A stretch of DNA of 64,000 nucleotides from Deltaproteobacteria bacterium (lineage in GTDB: Bacteria > Desulfobacterota > Desulfarculia > Desulfarculales > Desulfarculaceae): assembly GCA_020444165.1 (NCBI GenBank), contig JAHLLK010000021.1, positions 1-64,000 on the forward strand, written 5' to 3'. Shown here one piece after another: positions 2,946 to 61,490 of the stretch. Position 1 is the first letter of the stretch. The number at the start of each line of letters is the position of its first letter. The notes beneath the pieces are model-generated. The model had not been told where the DNA came from. It made no database searches and saw only the letters and a list, made by a program, of their open reading frames with translations. Both the position numbers and the translations under genes were made by a program.

Positions 2946-3464
2946 TAAGTAAGTTGAACCATAGGCTTTCACGGCCGAGCACCCCGGAAAGTGGGTAATT
3001 GGCTGAACACAACTGCGGCCCGATAACCCCGGCAGCCTCCCTCTCGGACCTGGGACCACCATTGGCAAGCCTGCGGCTTGCTGAAGGACCCCGGGAACGG
3101 CTCTCTCCGACCCACTCCCAGGCCCGGCGTACCAGCCCCTCCCAGCGGAGGCCGCGCCATAGCCCCGCCCCGCCGCCGCCGCCGCCTGGCGCCGAATTTC
3201 CCTTTGTGTCAATGCTTTAAACCGTCCCGCGGGGAGCACTTTCCCGACGGGAAGGGCGATAGGCCTTTAGGAAAGGACAAGTTACGTGCGCCTCGGCCCA
3301 TTCCCGCGCGGCTTCCCGCCGCGCTCCCCATACTGCCCGGCTCCCGCCTTTTCCTCCCTTCCTTCCCCGTCCGCCCCGGCTCCGGCCGGGGCGGGCGGCG
3401 TGCCCTGGGCGGCGGGGCCGGGGCCGGGCCCCCGGCGGCAACCCCTTCCCGGAAAGGCTGCAAA
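2946..3464. other. Gene-free GC-rich stretch before the packaging genes
   Basis: About 520 bp between repeat copy A and the small terminase gene. Open frames here are biased Pro/Arg/Gly shadows without ribosome sites. Poly-GCC runs and AGGAAAGG-like purine tracts are visible, but no supportable gene or RNA. It could hold the promoter of the packaging genes. Confidence 0.4.
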
Positions 3465-29499: not shown

Positions 29500-30054
29500 A
29501 TGGAGTTGTCTGACCTGCCCCGGGACCTGCAGGAGACCGTGAAGTTTCACGGCCACCTCTGTCCGGGTTTGTTGATAGGTTACCGGACGGCCAAGGCGGC
29601 TTTGGCCCGCCTGGGGGCCGGCCGGTCGGAGGATGAGGAACTGGCCGTGGTGGCGGAGAACAACAGCTGCAGCGTGGACGCCATGCAGGTGCTGTTGGGA
29701 GCCACCTTTGGCAAGGGCAACCTCAAATGGCGGGACTACGGCAAGCAGGTGTTCTTCATCTACGACCGCAAACGCGAGCAGGCGCTCAGGGTGAGCTTTG
29801 TGGGCGATCATCTGCGCACCGACGGGCCGGATGGGCAGCCCGACCGCGAGGGCTTCAGCCGGGCCCTGTTGGCCGCGCCGGATGAGGAGCTGTTCAAGTT
29901 CCGCGAGGTGGACTTTTTCCCCCCGCCCGAGGCGGTGATCGAACCGGGCATCGTTTGCGACGCTTGCGGCGAGCGCACCCAGGAGAGCCGCTTGGTGGTG
30001 CGGAGCGGCCGGTCCCTGTGCCGCTCCTGCGCGGCCCGGGAGGGCGTGTCTTGA
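29500..30054 (+). CDS. FmdE-family protein
   Basis: The 184-residue protein has the FmdE hallmark HGHLCPGLLIGYRTA near residue 18 and NNSCSVDAMQVLLG near 55. The C-terminal zinc ribbon reads CDACGERTQES and CRSCAAREG. FmdE was named as a formylmethanofuran dehydrogenase subunit, but many bacteria without that pathway have it, sometimes with molybdenum-enzyme or heme genes. Function here is unknown. Its stop overlaps the start of the HD-domain gene (TTGA). Confidence 0.82.
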   Translation: MELSDLPRDLQETVKFHGHLCPGLLIGYRTAKAALARLGAGRSEDEELAVVAENNSCSVDAMQVLLGATFGKGNLKWRDYGKQVFFIYDRKREQALRVSFVGDHLRTDGPDGQPDREGFSRALLAAPDEELFKFREVDFFPPPEAVIEPGIVCDACGERTQESRLVVRSGRSLCRSCAAREGVS

Positions 30055-30644
30055 AAGGGGTGACCGAGCTGGTGTTCGAGGCCGGCATGCTGAAAAAAAT
30101 GCGCCGCACCGGCTACCCCTTTTTGGGCAGCGGCGGCGAGTCGGTGGCGGACCATTGTTTCCGGGCGGCGCTTTTGGGCTATTGGCTGGCCCTGGAGCAT
30201 GGGACGGAACTGGGCGTGGAAGATCCGGCCCAGGTGGCGCTTTTGCTGTTGCACCACGACTTGGCCGAGGCCCGCACCGGCGATCTGAACTACATGAACA
30301 AGCGCTACTGCGTGGCTGACGAGGCCAAGGCCCTGGACCATCAGGTGCGGGACCTGCCCCCGGTCCTGGCGGGGCGGGTGCGGGCCCTGGTGGAGGAGTT
30401 CAACGAGTCGGCCACGCCGGCCGCCCGCCTGGCCCACGACGCGGACCAACTGGACCTTCTCGTGGAGCTGAAGGAGCAGCAGGACCTGGGCAACCCCTAC
30501 GCGCAGAAGTGGATTCACTACGCCCTGAAGCGCCTGACCACCGCGCCGGCCCAGCGGCTGGCGGCCGAGATCCTGGGCACGGATTGGACCGACTGGTGGT
30601 TCGAGAAGCGCGAGGAGCTGTGGGTGCACCACAACGGGAAATGA
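30051..30644 (+). CDS. HD-domain phosphohydrolase, YfbR-like
   Basis: The 197-residue protein has the metal-binding HD signature spread as SVADHCFRAA, LLHHDLAEA and HDADQLD, the pattern of HD_3/YfbR-type 5'-deoxynucleotidases. The TTG start at 30051 overlaps the upstream stop and has GGGAGGG nearby; GTG at 30060 is an alternative. A strong terminator follows, ahead of the small-RNA array on the opposite strand. Substrate is not determined by the sequence. Confidence 0.8.
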   Translation: MKGVTELVFEAGMLKKMRRTGYPFLGSGGESVADHCFRAALLGYWLALEHGTELGVEDPAQVALLLLHHDLAEARTGDLNYMNKRYCVADEAKALDHQVRDLPPVLAGRVRALVEEFNESATPAARLAHDADQLDLLVELKEQQDLGNPYAQKWIHYALKRLTTAPAQRLAAEILGTDWTDWWFEKREELWVHHNGK

Positions 30645-30706: not shown

Positions 30707-30774
30707 AAGGAAAGGCGCCCACTGGGGAGGTGGGCGCCTTCAAGGAAAGGAGAAAAGGGTGTTTAGCTGGTCGC
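30707..30774 (-). ncRNA. Tandem sigma-54 small RNA, copy 1
   Basis: Read on the minus strand, the predicted transcript begins GCGACCAGCUAAACACC 12 nt after the promoter GC. It continues with CUUUUCUCCUUUCCUUG and ends in a 9-bp stem (GGCGCCCAC, loop, GTGGGCGCC at 30738-30714) and a T-rich tail. Length is about 68 nt. Copies 1 and 2 are a 118-bp direct duplication including the promoter. There is no open reading frame of note. This is the last unit of the array in the direction of transcription. Confidence 0.8.
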
Positions 30775-30785
30775 CCTATGAATAA

Positions 30786-30800
30786 GCAACTATGATGCCA
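30786..30800 (-). promoter_or_regulatory. Sigma-54 promoter of small RNA copy 1
   Basis: TGGCATCATAGTTGC on the minus strand: GG at -24 and GC at -12 with exact spacing against the consensus TGGCACG-N4-TTGC. Confidence 0.78.
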
Positions 30801-30824
30801 ACCCCCGGGGCGGGGGACAGGGCA

Positions 30825-30892
30825 AGGAAAAGGCGCCCACTGGGGAGGTGGGCGCCTTCAAGGAAAGGAGAAAAGGGTGTTTAGCTGGTCGC
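30825..30892 (-). ncRNA. Tandem sigma-54 small RNA, copy 2
   Basis: Identical in its transcribed part to copy 1, shifted by 118 bp. It has the same 5' box GCGACCAGCU, the same anti-Shine-Dalgarno tract and the GGCGCCCAC terminator stem (30856-30832), followed by TTTTCCTTG. Confidence 0.8.
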
Positions 30893-30903
30893 CCTATGAA
30901 TAA

Positions 30904-30918
30904 GCAACTATGATGCCA
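30904..30918 (-). promoter_or_regulatory. Sigma-54 promoter of small RNA copy 2
   Basis: TGGCATCATAGTTGC on the minus strand, identical to that of copy 1, 12 nt before the conserved RNA start. Confidence 0.78.
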
Positions 30919-30942
30919 ACCCCCGGGGCGGGGGACAGGGCA

Positions 30943-31010
30943 AAGAAAAGGCGCCCACTGGGGAGGTGGGCGCCTTCATAGGAAGGAGAAAAGGGTGATT
31001 AGCTGGTCGC
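30943..31010 (-). ncRNA. Tandem sigma-54 small RNA, copy 3
   Basis: It starts GCGACCAGCUAAUCACC; the tract reads CUUUUCUCCUUCCUAUG, one U shorter than the others. The terminator is again GGCGCCCAC/GTGGGCGCC (30974-30950) with TTTTCTTTG after it. The promoter differs in sequence from copies 1 and 2 yet keeps perfect spacing. Confidence 0.82.
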
Positions 31011-31021
31011 ACGTAGATTAA

Positions 31022-31036
31022 GCAAGGACGGTGCCA
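31022..31036 (-). promoter_or_regulatory. Sigma-54 promoter of small RNA copy 3
   Basis: TGGCACCGTCCTTGC on the minus strand, a near-perfect match to the sigma-54 consensus. Confidence 0.85.
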
Positions 31037-31075
31037 AACCGCCCGCCCCCGTGACTTTGGCTGCTGGTCGAGCAA

Positions 31076-31147
31076 AAAAAAGGAAAGACGCCCATTGGGG
31101 AGATGGGCGTCTTCAAGGAAAGGAGAAAAGGGTGTTTAGCTGGTCGC
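31076..31147 (-). ncRNA. Tandem sigma-54 small RNA, copy 4
   Basis: It starts GCGACCAGCUAAACACC and carries CUUUUCUCCUUUCCUUG. The terminator stem is AAGACGCCCAT/ATGGGCGTCTT (31113-31085), with compensatory changes against copies 1-3, and a run of T residues follows. The DNA between this unit and its neighbours is unrelated, so promoter and RNA are conserved against diverged spacers. Confidence 0.85.
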
Positions 31148-31158
31148 CCTGTAATTAA

Positions 31159-31173
31159 GCAAGGACGGTGCCA
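31159..31173 (-). promoter_or_regulatory. Sigma-54 promoter of small RNA copy 4
   Basis: TGGCACCGTCCTTGC on the minus strand, GG/GC spacing exact. Confidence 0.85.
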
Positions 31174-31286
31174 ACAAGGCCATTGGTCGAGGAGGCCCAG
31201 GATGGGGCCGCGGTGCGTTGGCCGGCCAACCAGCTAAATTAAATAGTCTTTACCTAAAACTGCCAATGCCTGGCGCACCGGAGAAT

Positions 31287-31358
31287 AAAAAAGGAAAGAC
31301 GCCCACTGGGGAGGTGGGCGTCTTCATGGAAAGGAGAAAAGGGTGTTTAGCTGGTCGC
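31287..31358 (-). ncRNA. Tandem sigma-54 small RNA, copy 5
   Basis: It starts GCGACCAGCUAAACACC and carries CUUUUCUCCUUUCCAUG. The terminator stem is AAGACGCCCAC/GTGGGCGTCTT (31324-31296) with TTTCCTTTTTTATT after it. A ~110-bp A/T-containing spacer (31174-31286) separates it from copy 4. Confidence 0.85.
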
Positions 31359-31369
31359 CCTGTAATTAA

Positions 31370-31384
31370 GCAAGGACGGTGCCA
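31370..31384 (-). promoter_or_regulatory. Sigma-54 promoter of small RNA copy 5
   Basis: TGGCACCGTCCTTGC on the minus strand, identical to copies 3 and 4. Confidence 0.85.
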
Positions 31385-31512
31385 ACCCCAGGCGGCCGGC
31401 CGGTTTCCTCCGGGCCACCGGCCTTTCGCCCCCTGGGTCCTGGCGGGATATTTTGAACTATATTACCTCGTTATCCCGCCAGAGCCCTCCGGGACGCCGC
31501 CCTGCCGCGCGC

Positions 31513-31582
31513 CCTAAAAAAAAGACGCCCACTGGCTGGTGGGCGTCTTCCTGGAAAGGAGAAAAGGGTGTTAGCTGGTCGC
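31513..31582 (-). ncRNA. Tandem sigma-54 small RNA, copy 6
   Basis: First unit in the direction of transcription and nearest to glyA. It starts GCGACCAGCUAACACCC and carries CUUUUCUCCUUUCCAGG. The stem AAGACGCCCAC/GTGGGCGTCTT (31549-31522) has a different loop (6 nt), followed by eight T residues. It is the most diverged copy, yet the core is unchanged. Confidence 0.83.
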
Positions 31583-31593
31583 GTGAAAAAATA

Positions 31594-31608
31594 GCAAGAA
31601 GCATGCCA
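31594..31608 (-). promoter_or_regulatory. Sigma-54 promoter of small RNA copy 6
   Basis: TGGCATGCTTCTTGC on the minus strand. The spacer differs from all other copies but the -24/-12 elements and the 12-nt distance to the RNA start are kept. Upstream A/T-rich DNA (31610-31680) could hold activator sites. Confidence 0.8.
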
Positions 31609-31715: not shown

Positions 31716-31816
31716 CGGTTCAAAAATTTGAACCCGCCGCGGGGCGCGGCGGGTTACAGTTCTGTGATCCTATTGTTTTCAGAGGCAATTTGGCGGTTGA
31801 AAAAATTGAACCGCCC
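31716..31816 (-). terminator. Hairpin cluster at the 3' end of glyA
   Basis: Three inverted repeats lie after the glyA stop: GGCGGTT/AACCGCC (31792-31815), CCCGCCGCG/CGCGGCGGG (about 31733-31754) and GGTTCAAA/TTTGAACC (31718-31735). T-runs are in the loops and flanks. Together they probably stop glyA transcription before the small-RNA array. Confidence 0.5.
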
Positions 31817-31840: not shown

Positions 31841-33082
31841 TTAACCCAGGCCGGGCGCCGGAAATTTAGCACACATTTCGGCGACTTCCCCGCGGACGAC
31901 CGCCAGGGCCGCCTCGTCGCCCACCAGAGTGGCCACGCGGGATATCAGCTCGGCCACGCGGGCCATCTCCGCCTCGCCCATGCCGCGGCTGGTCAGGGCC
32001 GGGGTGCCGAAGCGCACGCCGCTGGGGTCGTTGGCCGAGCGGGGGTCAAAGGGGATCTTGTTGGCGTTGGCCACGATGCCGGCCTGTTCCAGGGCGCTGG
32101 CCAGCACCTTGCCGGTGAGCCCCTTTTGGCCGGCGTCCAGGAGCACCAGGTGGTTGTCCGTGCCGCCGGTGACCAGGCTGAAGCCCTGCTCCAACAGGCC
32201 CTCGGCCAGGGCCCGGGCGTTCTTGGCCACCTGGTGACAGTAGTCGTGGAACTCCTGGCCCGAGGCTTCCTTGAGGGCCACGGCGATGGCCGCAGTGATG
32301 TGGTTGTGCGGGCCGCCCTGCAGGCCGGGGAACACGGCCTTGTCGATCTTGGCGGCCAGGTCCTGGCGGCAGATGATGAGGCCGCCCCGGGGGCCGCGGA
32401 GGAGCTTGTGGGTGGTGGAGGTCACCACGTCGGCGTGGGGCAGGGGGTGGGGATGGTCGCCGCTGATGCACAGGCCCGAAATGTGGCTGATGTCCGCCAC
32501 CAGGTAGGCCCCCACCTCGCGGGCGATTTCGCCGAAGATGGCGAAATCGATGGCGCGGGGGTAGGAGGAAGCGCCGCAGAACAGGAGTTGGGGCTCGAAG
32601 TCCAACACCTCGCGCCGCACCTGGTCATAATCCAGGCGGCCGGTGTCCCGGTTCAAATGGTAGCCCCGCACGTCGTAGTAAGTGCCGGAAAAGCTGGCTT
32701 TGGTCCCATGGGTCAGGTGGCCGCCCGCGGCCAGGTCCATGCCCATCACCCGCCCGGATTTGCCCAACAGCCCCAGGTATACGGCCATGTTGGCCGGGCT
32801 GCCGGAGTAGGGCTGCACGTTGATGTGCTCGCCGCCGAACACCTGTTTGGCCCTTTGGATGGCCAGCTCTTCCACCTGGTCGATGTTTTCCTGACCTTGG
32901 TAGTAGCGGTGCCGGGGGTAGCCCTCCGAGTATTTGTTGCACAGAATGGAGCCGGTGGCCTCCAGGACCGCCTGGGAGGCGTAGTTTTCCGAGGGGATCA
33001 TGCGCAGACTGGCCTTTTGCCGGGCGGTCTCGGCCTCGATGAGGGCCGCCAGCTCCGGGTCCACGCGCTTCAACTCTTCCAT
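31841..33082 (-). CDS. glyA: Serine hydroxymethyltransferase
   Basis: The 413-residue PLP enzyme interconverts serine and glycine with tetrahydrofolate. Motifs seen are MIPSENYASQAVLEA, NKYSEGYPRHRYYQG, the PLP-lysine segment VVTSTTHKLLRGPRGG and NANKIPFDPRS. Length is normal. The start at 33082 follows GGGAAAGGA; eight bases of it (33092-33099 on the plus strand) are perfectly complementary to the UCCUUUCC of the downstream small RNAs, with a ninth G-U pair. That makes glyA a candidate target of the array (inference). Upstream (33100-33270) no other gene is seen. Confidence 0.95.
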   Translation of the reverse strand: MEELKRVDPELAALIEAETARQKASLRMIPSENYASQAVLEATGSILCNKYSEGYPRHRYYQGQENIDQVEELAIQRAKQVFGGEHINVQPYSGSPANMAVYLGLLGKSGRVMGMDLAAGGHLTHGTKASFSGTYYDVRGYHLNRDTGRLDYDQVRREVLDFEPQLLFCGASSYPRAIDFAIFGEIAREVGAYLVADISHISGLCISGDHPHPLPHADVVTSTTHKLLRGPRGGLIICRQDLAAKIDKAVFPGLQGGPHNHITAAIAVALKEASGQEFHDYCHQVAKNARALAEGLLEQGFSLVTGGTDNHLVLLDAGQKGLTGKVLASALEQAGIVANANKIPFDPRSANDPSGVRFGTPALTSRGMGEAEMARVAELISRVATLVGDEAALAVVRGEVAEMCAKFPAPGLG

Positions 33083-33274
33083 GGCATAAATTCCTTTCCC
33101 ATTGCTCGAAGTCAATGAATATGTCACAGGCGGGAAAGGTTGTCAACGTTGTGACACTTAAGTCCAGCGCACCCGGCCTTGGCCCCAGCCGGGTTTTGCG
33201 GTACAACAACTTCATGACCCCCGGTCCCCGGCCGCGCCACGGACCGGGATCATCTTTATCCAGAGGGAGAATGC

Positions 33275-35075: not shown

Positions 35076-35757
35076 ACTTTCAGGCTGGCTACCAAGCCAC
35101 CTTCGGGAGCGCGCGAGCTTGGCTTGAATGATGGCCCCGCTCGACACGCAATGCCAGCAGCGGCACGCTGCCGCGAGTGCATTGGTTCATTACCAAGCCA
35201 ACTTCGGGAGTACGCGAGCTTGGCTTGAATGATGGCCCCGCCCGACACGCAATGCCAGCAGCGGCACGCTGCCGCGTTGGCCAGGGTATTTGCCAGCCCA
35301 CCTACGGGAGCGCGCGGCATTGGCTTGAATGATGGCCTTCCCCGACACGATACGCCAGCAGCGGCACGCTGCCGGCACGCTGCCCAGACCCCTGCTTTCA
35401 GGCTGGCTACCAAGCCACCTTCGGGAGCGCGCGAGCTTGGCTTGAATGATGACCTTCCCCGACACGATACGCCAGCAGCGGCACGCTGCCACGACACGCA
35501 ATGCCAGCAGCGGCACGCTGCCGCGTTGGCCAGGGTATTTGCCAGCCCACCTACGGGAGCGCGCGGCATTGGCTTGAATGATGGCCTTCCCCGACACGAT
35601 ACGCCAGCAGCGGCACGCTGCCCCGACACGATACGCCAGCAGTGGCACGCTGCCCCGAGTGCATTGGTTCATTACCAAGCCAACTTCGGGAGCGTTTGGC
35701 CTTGGCTTGAATGATGGCCCCGCTCGACACGTAATGCCAGCAGTGGCACGCTGCCCG
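35076..35757. repeat. Modular palindromic repeat array (six units, three types)
   Basis: Six units share the core GGCTTGAATGATG and the 3' hairpin GCAGCG-GCA-CGCTGC. Each unit begins with one of three prefixes: X (TTTCAGGCTGGCTACC), Y (GTGCATTGGTTCATTACC) or Z (GTTGGCCAGGGTATTTGCC). The order is X, Y, Z, X, Z, Y. A first hairpin (CCAAGC/GCTTGG) varies with pairing kept. Extra copies of the terminal hairpin sit after units 3, 4 and 5. No protein is likely here; the long open frames are a by-product of the repeat. Confidence 0.8.
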
Positions 35758-49814: not shown

Positions 49815-51851
49815 TTAGAAATCCGCGAAGTCGTCGTCTTCCAAGGGAATGACCTCCTCGGGCTTCTTGGTCTTGCCCTTCAGCGCCAGCGGCGGGGCCG
49901 CAGCCTTGCCGGCGGCAGAGCTCCGGCCCGCCCGGGAGGCGGGGGGTGCGGGAGAGTAGGCCAGTTGGGGCACGTGCTCGGCCTGCTTGGCTTTGCGGGC
50001 CTTCGCCTTTGGCTCCTTGCGGCTCTTCTTGAAGCCGTCCGAGCCTCTGCTGCCCACCAGGCCCACCAGATCGTCCACAAAGCCCTGCATGGTGCTGGCC
50101 TGGGCCGAAAGCTCCTCGGCCGAGGCCGCGGACTCCTCGGCGTTGGCCGCCACCTGCTGGGTCACCTTGTCCATCTCGGTGGCGGCCTTGTTCACCTGGT
50201 CGATGCCCTGGGCCTGCTCGGTGGAAGCGGCGGCGATCTCGCCCACCAGTTCGGTCACCTTTTCCGAGGAAGCGGCCACCTCGCTGAAGGCCTGGTTGGT
50301 GCGGCCCACCAGTTCGCTGCCCCGCTTGATGTTGTTCACCGAGCTTTCGATGAGGTTGGAGGTGTTCTTGGCCGCCTCGGCCGCGCGCATGGCCAGGTTC
50401 CTTACCTCGTCGGCCACCACGGCGAACCCGGCCCCGGCCTCGCCCGCCCGGGCCGCCTCCACCGCCGCGTTCAGGGCCAGGAGGTTGGTCTGGAAAGCGA
50501 TTTCGTCGATGGTCTTGATGATCTTGGAGGTCTCCTCGCTGGTCTTCTGGATCTGGTCCATGGACTGGGTCAGCTCGGTCATGGCCCCGTTGGCCTTTTT
50601 GACCACGGCGTTGGTCTCGGTGGTCAGGCCGTTGGCCTGGTTGGCGTTGTCGGCGTTCTGCTTGGTCATGGAGGCCATCTCCTCCAGGGAGGAGGAGGTT
50701 TCCTCCAGGGCCGCCGCCTGCTCCGCCGCGCCTTCGGCCAGGGCCTGGCTGGCGTTGGCCACCTGGCCCGAAGCCGCGGCCACCTGCTGGGAGCCCTGGG
50801 ACAGGCCGTCGATGACCAAGCCGATGGGCCGGGTGATGGACAGGGTGATGACCACGGCCAGGACCACGCCCAGGACCAGGGCGATCAACAGCCCCACGAT
50901 AAGCACCCAGGAGGCGCTGGCGAGGTGGCTGACGGAGTCTTCGGAGATGCCCCCCATGGCCATCAGACCGGCTTCGTTGGTCTGCCGGGCCAGGGCCAGC
51001 ACCTCGTCGCCCGCCGCGTTCCTGGTCTTGTCCAGGGAACGGGCTTCATTCCAGGTGGACAGGAACCCGGCCATGGCCTGGCCGTAGGTCATGCCCGCGT
51101 TCTCAATGGCGGAAAGTTGTTGCTTGTTGCCCTCTTGGCGGGTGGTTTTCAGCAATTCCTGCATCTTGGGATCCACCTCGTCCAGCTTGGCGAGGGCTTG
51201 CTCCATCAGGGCCGGATCCCAGAAGGTCTGGGCCTTGAAGTTCAGCACCCGGACGTTGTTGCCGACATCAATGACCTCGTTGATCAAATTGATTTTCCGG
51301 TGCCGCGGGTGCAACTGCTCGGGCCCCGCCCCGGAATCCATTTCCACACTCATCGTGTCGTTCATGTCTCGGAGGTATTTGAAACATTGCTCCATGTAAG
51401 CGCCGGCTGATTTGTCCATTTCGTTGCGGAAATCAGCCATCTTCTTATTCAGGGCCACGGAATCGCCCACCAGCTTTTCGTACTGGGCCACCTTGCCCTG
51501 GGCGGTCTCCACGTTGGCTTGGAGCTTGGCCAGGGCCGGGTATTTGGCGGCCAGCTCCTGGCCCCGGCTCAGGTCGGACTTGACTTTTTCCAGGGAGGCT
51601 TCGGCCTGTTTCAGACCCTCTTGGTCCTCCCGCAGAGCATAAGCCCGCATGTGGAACATGGTCACCAGGGCGTCCCGTTCCAGGTTGGAGGTGATTTCCA
51701 CTTCCTTCACATATTGGTCGTTGAGCCTCTGGCTCTGGCCCTGCACTTCCAGCATGCTGTAAACCGCCATGCCGCCCAGGGCCAGGGAAATGGCGATCAA
51801 AAGCCCGAAGCCCAGGCTGATCTTGCCGGCCAGTTTCATCTTCTTCATCAT
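49815..51851 (-). CDS. Methyl-accepting chemotaxis protein
   Basis: The 678-residue receptor has TM1 at residues 8-30 ([20 protein letters not shown]), a helical periplasmic ligand domain of about 280 residues, TM2 near 310-335 ([20 protein letters not shown]) and a long signalling coiled coil. The hairpin tip reads [20 protein letters not shown], then [13 protein letters not shown]. The C terminus is a Lys/Ala/Pro linker ending [13 protein letters not shown] acidic residues ([10 protein letters not shown]), not a CheR pentapeptide. GGGGAGGAAG lies 4 nt before the ATG at 51851. CheW is encoded just upstream. Confidence 0.93.
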
Positions 51852-51881
51852 GCTTCCTCCCCTGAGCAATGAGATTCAGAC

Positions 51882-52367
51882 TTAAAGCGCCTCGGCTCCA
51901 AGCACTCTCTCGATATCCATGAGAATCTTCACCGATCCCCCGATCTTGGCAATGCCGGTGATGAATTGCATGTCCACGGCGGCGATGCCGAAATCCGGGC
52001 AATCTTCGATGTCTTGGGGTTTTATGGGCAGGACTTCCGAAACCGCGTCCACCACCACGCCCATGGTGTTGGGCCCGTTTTCGCCAGGCACCTCCACCAC
52101 CACGATGCAGGTGCGGTCGCTGTATTCGAGGGGAGGCATGGCAAACCGGAGGCGCAGGTCCACCACTGGAATGACCTTGCCCCGGAGGTTGATCACCCCC
52201 TTGACTTGCGGCGGGGTTTGGGGCACCGGCCGGATGGGGATCATGCCGATGATCTCTTTGACTTTGCATATGCCGATGCCATACTCTTCGGCATCCAAGG
52301 CAAAAGTAAGGTATTTACCTTCCCTGGCCCCATCCTCGGGTAAAGTTCTGGCAGGCTGTGGACTCAT
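51882..52367 (-). CDS. cheW: CheW chemotaxis coupling protein
   Basis: The 161-residue protein has the CheW fold: KYLTFALDAEEYGIGICKVKE, then PVPQTPPQVKGVINLRGKVIP, VVDLRLRF and a final GSVKILMDIERVL. It links chemoreceptors to the CheA kinase. GAGGAAT lies 5 nt before the ATG at 52367. The receptor gene begins 30 nt after its stop, so the two are an operon. CheA is not in the window. Confidence 0.93.
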   Translation of the reverse strand: MSPQPARTLPEDGAREGKYLTFALDAEEYGIGICKVKEIIGMIPIRPVPQTPPQVKGVINLRGKVIPVVDLRLRFAMPPLEYSDRTCIVVVEVPGENGPNTMGVVVDAVSEVLPIKPQDIEDCPDFGIAAVDMQFITGIAKIGGSVKILMDIERVLGAEAL

Positions 52368-52715
52368 GCGATTCCTCCCCCCTAGGGTATTGTCATGGAT
52401 GATGTGCGGGCAGAACGCACAAACCGGCGCGACCGCAGCCGCGTATCTGTCTTGGGCAACTGGGCAGGGGAAACTTGACGCGGTGCTCATCGATCCACCC
52501 AGGAGTTGCAAGGGCGGTGCCAGAACTGGCGAGGCCAGGTTGAATCGGTATTTTGGCTGGATTACAGCGGCTTTACCAGGACACCTCTCACGGGGAATAC
52601 GGAGGGTCGTCCGGCTGGTCGGTAATTACAAGGATATGTCCCGCTTCCTGGGATGGGCCGTTCTCGGATTCGGGACTATGTCCATAATAAGCAGACACGC
52701 CCAACAACTCAGCAA
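52368..52715. other. Spacer between cheW and the TesA-like gene
   Basis: About 350 bp. Upstream of cheW the minus strand has moderate A/T content that could hold its promoter, but no consensus is clear. No gene is supportable here. Confidence 0.35.
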
Positions 52716-61280: not shown

Positions 61281-61452
61281 AGGGCGACAAAAAAAACCGG
61301 CCTGAGCGCAGGGTCACACAAAAGGGCGACAAAAAAACCGGCCTGAGCGCAGGGTCACGCAGAAGGGCGACAAAAAAACCGCCCAACCTCGGGGTCACGC
61401 GGGAGGGCGACAAAAAAACCCGCCCAACCTGGTAGTCACGCAGAAGGGCGAC
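61281..61452. repeat. Five-unit ~41-bp tandem repeat with phased A7 tracts
   Basis: Units begin AGGGCGACAAAAAAACC at 61281, 61323, 61364, 61404 and 61445 (spacings 42, 41, 40, 41). The middle of each unit varies (GGCCTGAGCGCAGGGTCAC or GCCCAACCTCGGGGTCAC). The A-tracts (seven or eight A) recur about every four helical turns. It lies between the convergent kinase and dehydratase genes. Confidence 0.85.
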
Positions 61453-61490
61453 AAAAAAACCCGCCCGGCTGCATGCCGCGCGGGGTTTTT
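61453..61490. terminator. Bidirectional terminator of the 4-hydroxybutyryl-CoA dehydratase gene
   Basis: AACCCGCCCGGC pairs imperfectly with GCCGCGCGGGGTT. A T-run follows on the plus strand, and the A7 of the last repeat unit gives a T-run on the minus strand, 19 nt after the dehydratase stop. Confidence 0.75.

What the first reader, a model, noticed from the sequence alone, without database searches (positions are those of the whole stretch)
30707..31608. Six tandem sigma-54-dependent small RNAs, each with its own promoter and terminator
Six minus-strand units each show a -24/-12 promoter (TGGCAY-N5-TTGC), an identical 12-nt gap to the conserved box GCGACCAGCU, a conserved CUUUUCUCCUU tract, and a terminator stem. 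The stem switches between GGCGCCCAC and AAGACGCCCAY with both arms changing together. DNA between units 3-6 is unrelated, so promoter plus RNA is what is conserved. Multi-copy sigma-54 small RNAs are known (for example Qrr in Vibrio), but I recognise no family with this sequence.
Basis: partly seen in the sequence, partly recalled or inferred. Interest (0 to 1): 0.95.

Follow-up and report, generated by a model that had tools for sequence, protein, structure and literature searches.

The report
Six-copy small-RNA array silencing porins
A bacterial genome related to sulfate reducers carries six near-identical units, each with a sigma-54-type start signal and a stop hairpin, that are predicted to make one short regulatory RNA; comparison with relatives suggests that a dedicated sensor pair likely switches it on and that it would shut down outer-membrane pore proteins.

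Summary
Confirmed and extended. Six units each have a -24/-12 promoter, a predicted start at GCGACCAGCU, a CUUUUCUCCUU tract and a terminator whose arms change together. It is no scattered repeat: a covariance model finds the same promoter+RNA in 18 of 20 genomes of the nearest family, and distant versions in 21 further genomes of a phylum sample of 395. (1) An 18-bp palindrome upstream of the promoters is nearly private to these loci (19 of 21 sites). In the window it lies only ahead of the first-transcribed unit, so one enhancer probably serves six promoters. (2) In 12 genomes, mostly of other lineages, the RNA lies 178-382 bp behind one orthologous sigma-54 response-regulator gene. (3) Both conserved single-stranded parts of the RNA match leaders of one porin family, up to 17 nt, and RNA and target change together. 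Likely circuit: kinase, sigma-54 activator, sRNA, less porin; Hfq was not found in 20 family genomes. Rfam has no match above threshold. Sigma-54 ncRNAs beside regulators are known in Desulfovibrio, function unknown (PMC3333781, PMC4641369). Transcription is untested.

The parts
30785..30800 (-). unit 1: -24/-12 promoter TGGCAT-N5-TTGCT
30707..30774 (-). unit 1: predicted sRNA, start 30774, terminator stem 30711-30741
30903..30918 (-). unit 2: promoter
30826..30892 (-). unit 2: predicted sRNA, start 30892; unit 1+2 are a recent 118-bp tandem copy
31021..31036 (-). unit 3: promoter
30945..31010 (-). unit 3: predicted sRNA, start 31010
31158..31173 (-). unit 4: promoter
31080..31147 (-). unit 4: predicted sRNA, start 31147
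31369..31384 (-). unit 5: promoter
31290..31358 (-). unit 5: predicted sRNA, start 31358
31593..31608 (-). unit 6: promoter (nearest to the palindromes)
31516..31582 (-). unit 6: predicted sRNA, start 31582
31717..31734 (.). enhancer-like palindrome GGTTCAAAAATTTGAACC, 0 mismatches to the family site, about 108 bp ahead of the unit 6 promoter
31795..31812 (.). second enhancer-like palindrome, 2 mismatches
31841..33127 (-). glyA (serine hydroxymethyltransferase), the gene behind which the family's sRNA usually lies

Best explanation
The six units are predicted sigma-54-dependent genes for one short (about 65 nt) regulatory RNA, likely switched on together by a dedicated kinase/response-regulator pair bound to a single shared enhancer, and likely acting by pairing with and blocking the messenger RNAs of outer-membrane porins. 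Shown by sequence: the promoters, the RNA core, covarying terminators, the palindromes ahead of unit 6 only, conservation of promoter+RNA in relatives, and long complementarity to porin leaders in relatives. Inferred: that the palindrome binds the sigma-54 response regulator whose gene stands next to the RNA in sister lineages; that this protein loops to all six promoters (about 110 to 920 bp away); that pairing at the ribosome-binding site, or at a second leader site, lowers translation; that six copies raise the dose; and that the window's own genome, which is not held, has the same regulator and porins. The signal is unknown; a membrane kinase controlling porins would fit an envelope or solute signal.
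For: Promoters and RNA. Family: 18 of 20 genomes at E <= 0.1, best E of the weakest 8.4e-5; stem pairs in 95.4% of 345 cells, 10 of 12 pairs with changes on both sides (shuffle mean 6.6). Enhancer: 24 of 26 first-unit upstream regions within 3 mismatches (shuffles 0.15%); 21 sites in 17 of 20 genomes, 19 at sRNA loci by coordinates. Activator: orthologue 178-382 bp upstream on the same strand in 12 genomes, two of which were picked by the protein alone; orthologue present in 19 of 20 family genomes, with a kinase gene just upstream in 15 of 19 loci. Target: of 33 genome-wide sites of the 13-mer complement, 14 are the sRNA genes and 9 are ribosome-binding sites of one porin family; own-RNA perfect match >= 12 nt in 17 of 18 genomes against a mean of 6.0 and a maximum of 10 in 153 control windows; G147 changed on both sides (15 nt with its own RNA, mean 7.0 with others); 5'-box complement 12 times, reverse sequence 0 times, in 60 leaders. 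Porin fold.
Against: No transcript, binding or regulation was measured. In the family itself the regulator gene is not beside the RNA, and G306 has the RNA but no regulator orthologue found. The regulator's receiver+ATPase part is also 57-62% alike in 14 class genomes without the full match. 13 of the 21 loci outside the class have no such neighbour. Two of 21 palindromes lie elsewhere, in G303. All porin leaders are homologous, so shared descent inflates the match; 25 of 51 leaders in sRNA-bearing family genomes match at neither site, and G299 reaches only 9 nt. G298 and G308, where no RNA was found, still hold 4 of the 12 box complements: either their RNA was missed or the site has another cause. 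The window holds no porin and no own target above 10 nt.
Confidence: 0.6

Rival explanations
1. The RNA is real and sigma-54-controlled, but it is a broad anti-Shine-Dalgarno regulator of many mRNAs (lipoproteins, periplasmic and other genes), with porins only one group among its targets.
For: Of 30 fetched starts preceded by AAGGAGAAAAG, 19 are not the porin, several of them exported proteins; a lipoprotein-like gene carries the 13-mer.
Against: With the longer 13-mer, 9 of 19 sites outside sRNA genes are porin ribosome-binding sites and, of seven other sites read, one is at a start; a second seed also fits porin leaders.
Confidence: 0.25
2. The RNA is sigma-54-dependent, but its activator is another enhancer-binding protein, and the neighbouring regulator gene in sister lineages serves a diverged paralogue of the RNA.
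For: In the family the regulator lies elsewhere; the palindromes differ between lineages; family genomes have many such regulators.
Against: Neighbourhood in 12 genomes at nearly constant distance, two of them predicted from the protein; related palindromes there, such as GGTAAAAAAATTTTTACT and GGTACAAAATTTTGTACT.
Confidence: 0.2
3. The RNA titrates a protein (a CsrA/RsmA-type sponge) rather than pairing with mRNA.
For: Multi-copy RNAs under two-component control are often sponges (recalled).
Against: No conserved GGA motif: of the six units only unit 6 has one, at the base of the stem; long co-varying complementarity to porin leaders.
Confidence: 0.04
4. An ordinary mobile or satellite repeat with promoter-like sequence by chance.
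For: Units 1-3 are 118-bp tandem repeats.
Against: One or two copies at a conserved place in relatives; promoter, spacing, box, tract and stem are kept.
Confidence: 0.02

Closest known systems
ncRNAs downstream of the sigma-54 response regulators DVU0679 (Dv_sRNA2) and DVU0653 of Desulfovibrio vulgaris (PMC3333781 and PMC4641369, passages and one section seen)
   Same: sigma-54 response regulator controlling an ncRNA that lies just downstream of its own gene; the same broad group of bacteria.
   Different: Function stated as unknown there; no target, no array. I could not compare sequences, so kinship with this family is open.
Qrr sRNAs / LuxO of Vibrio (recalled)
   Same: Several copies, sigma-54 promoters, one response-regulator activator, gene of the activator next to a copy, base pairing at ribosome-binding sites.
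   Different: No sequence match in Rfam scans; Qrr genes are mostly dispersed with their own upstream sites and need Hfq (recalled); here one shared enhancer and no Hfq found.
LhrC1-5 of Listeria monocytogenes (PMC4132741, passages seen)
   Same: Five near-identical copies, two-component control (LisRK), CU-rich motif that blocks translation of surface-protein mRNA.
   Different: 111-114 nt, three UCCC motifs, different bacteria; no sigma-54 promoters are mentioned in the passages seen.
MmgR / suhB family RF00519 of alphaproteobacteria
   Same: Short sRNA with a CU-rich tract before a terminator; best sub-threshold Rfam match; nitrogen-control link is recalled.
   Different: 24.5 bits against a cut-off of 41; other phylum; single copy (recalled).
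Porin-repressing sRNAs MicF, MicC, RybB (recalled)
   Same: Would lower outer-membrane pores by pairing at mRNA leaders.
   Different: Other promoters, Hfq-dependent, no sequence relation (recalled).

Membership tests
sigma-54-dependent sRNA (kind) | -24/-12 promoter at fixed distance from the RNA start, with an upstream activator site | tested here: met
sigma-54-dependent sRNA (kind) | rpoN-dependent transcript | not testable with these tools
   needs RNA data
Qrr | match to a known Rfam family at its cut-off | tested here: not met
   no family reaches its cut-off in the window
Qrr | Hfq dependence | tested here: inconclusive
   Hfq (PF17209) found in 0 of 20 family genomes, 5 of 14 controls positive; window genome not held
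DVU0679/DVU0653-type regulator-adjacent ncRNA | ncRNA just downstream of its sigma-54 response-regulator gene | tested here: met
   met in 12 genomes of other lineages; not met in the nearest family, not testable in the window
DVU0679/DVU0653-type regulator-adjacent ncRNA | sequence kinship with Dv_sRNA2 or the DVU0653 ncRNA | not tested
   their sequences were not at hand
LhrC-like multi-copy anti-SD sRNA | several near-identical copies with a CU-rich single-stranded motif | tested here: met
   (works like; not a member by sequence)
MmgR/suhB RF00519 | score at or above the curated cut-off | tested here: not met
   24.5 bits against 41
CsrA/RsmA sponge RNA | repeated GGA motifs | tested here: not met
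   one GGA, in unit 6 only

The most novel reading that the evidence does not exclude
A new phylum-wide regulatory circuit of Desulfobacterota-type bacteria: a dedicated membrane kinase/sigma-54 activator pair fires a family of short two-seed sRNAs that silence porins without Hfq; in this genome one enhancer drives six tandem sigma-54 promoters, a built-in dose amplifier, while sRNAs and porins co-evolve base by base, down to copy-specific pairs (G306, G307).
Probability: 0.42. Interest if true: 0.88.

Novelty: new variant of a known kind. Interest (0 to 1): 0.8.

Why it matters
If true, it gives a testable start-to-end circuit (sensor, activator, enhancer, sRNA, target) for sigma-54 regulatory RNAs in sulfate-reducer-like lineages, where such ncRNAs were mapped in Desulfovibrio with unknown function. 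It would be a natural case of one enhancer serving six sigma-54 promoters, and a base-pairing sRNA system in genomes where Hfq was not found.

Tried and rejected
Exact-pattern scan of genome contigs: 2 hits, neither with promoter or terminator, so read as chance. Promoter+box scan of viral contigs: 6 hits, none with the CU tract; no sign of a phage-borne copy with that pattern.

Idea that every regulator carries a neighbouring copy: dropped, as model R2 finds none in the 19 family regulator loci.

IHF-like site between palindrome and promoter: <= 1 mismatch in 15 of 26 against 14% of shuffles, but 2 mismatches in the window; nothing rests on it.

Peptide coding: an ATG occurs only in units 3 and 5, at the base of the terminator, so there is no shared reading frame with that start; not favoured.

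Target scan of the window's own gene starts: best 10 nt, no porin; nothing claimed. Taxon of the window: not settled. GlyA is 74% identical to G016; G016's length of 3,655,731 bp is, from memory, that of Desulfarculus baarsii; a paper search did not confirm it.

Rows dropped before counts; 35 upstream regions printed, 26 counted as first units, nine left out (window units 1-5 and four second copies). Porin leaders: 60 of the 73 rows; 13 left out (fragments without the start, or weak rows). Searches used one fixed start position per leader, which is a few codons off in some. One search used 18 family genomes with an RNA; G348, G349, G298 and G308 were not in it; seven of ten other sites were read; 30 of 42 hits were fetched.

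Full report
WHAT IS THERE. Between glyA (31841-33127, minus) and an HD-domain gene (29955-30644, plus) lie six minus-strand units. Each has TGGCAY-N5-TTGC, 11 nt, then GCGACCAGCU where +1 is expected, a spacer, CCUUUUCUCCUU and a terminator stem. Seven sigma-54-type sites occur in the window against 0.17 expected; six are these. Units 1 and 2 are recent 118-bp tandem copies. No Rfam family reaches its cut-off in the window; below cut-off the best is RF00519 (24.5 bits, cut-off 41), and seven relative loci gave only two weak matches, neither at its cut-off.

IS IT A FAMILY? The window's genome is not held. GlyA led to the closest genomes (best 74%). A covariance model of the six units finds promoter+RNA in 18 of 20 genomes of that family; G298 and G308 gave none. 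Of the eight sRNA-bearing genomes whose glyA was placed, seven have the RNA 202-252 bp behind the GlyA match (G016, G054, G090, G119, G173, G197, G283); G147 has its copies on other contigs. Over 29 family sequences the terminator pairs in 95.4% of cells, with changes on both sides at 10 of 12 pairs. A second model gives strong matches in G348 and G349 of the same class, besides the family, and nine further weak ones (E 2.6e-4 to 0.008) among 63 class genomes. In a phylum sample, 31 of 395 genomes match at E <= 1e-5: ten of the family and 21 outside the class (strict filters). Tandem pairs occur in G305, G090, G306 and G307; six copies is the most I saw.

THE ENHANCER. Upstream regions share GGTWCAAAWWTTTGWACC. 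Of 26 first-unit regions 24 have it within 3 mismatches (shuffles 0.15%); its gap to -24 is 96-98 bp in 14, 107-108 bp in four (the window among them) and 83-207 bp in six. Over 20 whole genomes the site (<= 1 mismatch) occurs 21 times in 17 genomes, 19 of them at sRNA loci; the reversed control pattern occurs once. In the window it occurs only ahead of unit 6. The second units of four two-copy loci also lack it within 250 bp. I infer that one enhancer serves all promoters of an array.

THE LIKELY ACTIVATOR. In G348 and G349 one copy of the RNA follows a histidine kinase gene and a sigma-54 response-regulator gene. In the loci fetched from outside the class, 8 of 21 have the same orthologue (55-59% over full length) 178-248 bp upstream on the same strand; with G348 (382 bp) and G349 (191 bp) that makes ten, and G347 has a weak RNA match 845 bp behind it. 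G344 and G345 were then picked by the protein alone, and the RNA model found a match 221 and 225 bp behind it. The orthologue is kept in 19 of 20 family genomes, a kinase gene just upstream in 15 of 19 loci, but no RNA beside it there. Against exclusiveness: 14 more class genomes match the receiver+ATPase part at 57-62% without the last 50 or so residues. Precedent: in Desulfovibrio vulgaris, sigma-54 regulators DVU0679 and DVU0653 are listed with an ncRNA downstream of their own genes (PMC3333781, passages and section 21; PMC4641369, passages). Only these two papers of the library name DVU0679.

THE LIKELY TARGET. Starts preceded by AAGGAGAAAAG gave 42 hits in 16 of 20 genomes; of 30 fetched, 11 are the same exported protein. 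Its model is a beta barrel of modest confidence (four sequences, mean pLDDT 63.8, pTM 0.64) whose best PDB matches are OmpT, DcaP and PorB-type porins; Pfam is at most weakly positive. Genome-wide, AAAGGAGAAAAGG occurs 33 times in 16 of 20 genomes: 14 sRNA genes, 9 porin ribosome-binding sites, 10 others; of seven others read, one precedes a start, of a lipoprotein-like gene. Perfect matches of a genome's own RNA reach 17 nt (G283, G300, G301) and at least 12 nt in 17 of 18 genomes; 153 control windows further upstream have a mean of 6.0 and a maximum of 10. Matches co-vary: in G147 tract and porin sites both changed (15 nt with its own RNA, mean 7.0 with other genomes' RNAs). Permuting RNAs among the 18 genomes never reaches the observed sum (0 of 20000; 253 against 212, sd 7.2), though relatedness inflates this. 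The 5' box has its own complement in porin leaders: AGCTGGT 12 times, the reverse sequence 0 times, in 60 leaders (simple shuffles: mean 1.4, maximum 7 of 200); four of the 12 are in G298 and G308, where no RNA was found. In G306 and its close relative G307 the two RNA copies have different boxes, and two porins carry the two matching complements. The two leader sites lie in an order that one RNA cannot fill as one straight duplex, so they would be used singly or by two RNAs. Among 63 class genomes the porin family is found in the 20 family genomes plus G348 and G349. Against: 25 of 51 leaders in sRNA-bearing family genomes pass at neither site (thresholds 8 and 10 nt), G299 reaches 9 nt, and the leaders are homologous.

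CHAPERONE. Hfq (PF17209) is found in 0 of 20 family genomes; the same search finds it in 5 of 14 control genomes. A diverged Hfq or another chaperone is not excluded.

HOW IT PROBABLY WORKS. Signal, kinase, phosphorylated sigma-54 activator on the palindrome, looping to one or (here) six promoters, short sRNAs, pairing over the Shine-Dalgarno or a leader site of porin mRNAs, less porin. Shown: anatomy, conservation, complementarity. Inferred: every arrow, and its transfer to the window's own genome.

COMPARED WITH WHAT IS KNOWN. In control it works like Qrr/LuxO (recalled); in copy number, CU motif and two-component control like LhrC1-5 (PMC4132741, passages); by sequence it is neither. Listings on multi-copy and nitrogen-controlled sRNAs showed nothing on this family; nor did the ten papers listed for sigma-54, sRNA and porin, the ten of 23 listed for sRNAs of sulfate reducers, or the eight of 7,665 listed for Desulfarculus-group names with sRNA. 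That it is undescribed is only as sure as these searches, of which I saw titles and abstract starts.

Noticed in passing
window 52507-52522 (-), ORFs 51882-52511 and 49815-51869 (-): The seventh sigma-54-type site of the window (TGGCACCGCCCTTGCA) stands ahead of a CheW-like ORF and a methyl-accepting-chemotaxis-protein-like ORF (read by eye from the translations).
   Followed up: partly
window 35090-35756: Two adjoining tandem arrays (periods about 101 and 132 bp) built of related sub-units, with long spurious repetitive ORFs.
   Followed up: no
window 61281-61466: Tandem array of a 41-bp unit, about 4.5 copies.
   Followed up: no
L042 about 1475-1493: In G300 a copy of AAGGAGAAAAGGCTTTTGG, the complement of the RNA's own tract, lies just ahead of the RNA's promoter; G301 has a similar stretch. 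Possibly a remnant or a self-pairing site.
   Followed up: no
L067 (G302 C1), L090 (G283 C1): Weak model matches with a sigma-54-type promoter and several CUCC motifs near AMP-ligase-like ORFs: perhaps a second, related sRNA family.
   Followed up: partly
L326 (G303 C476) 108-125: One of the two palindromes not at an sRNA locus lies near a run of small ORFs that look like Nif11-type leader peptides (by eye).
   Followed up: partly
L092 (G119 C116) 2986-3082: A second, dispersed RNA copy with its own palindrome, next to a divergent chemotaxis-receptor gene.
   Followed up: partly
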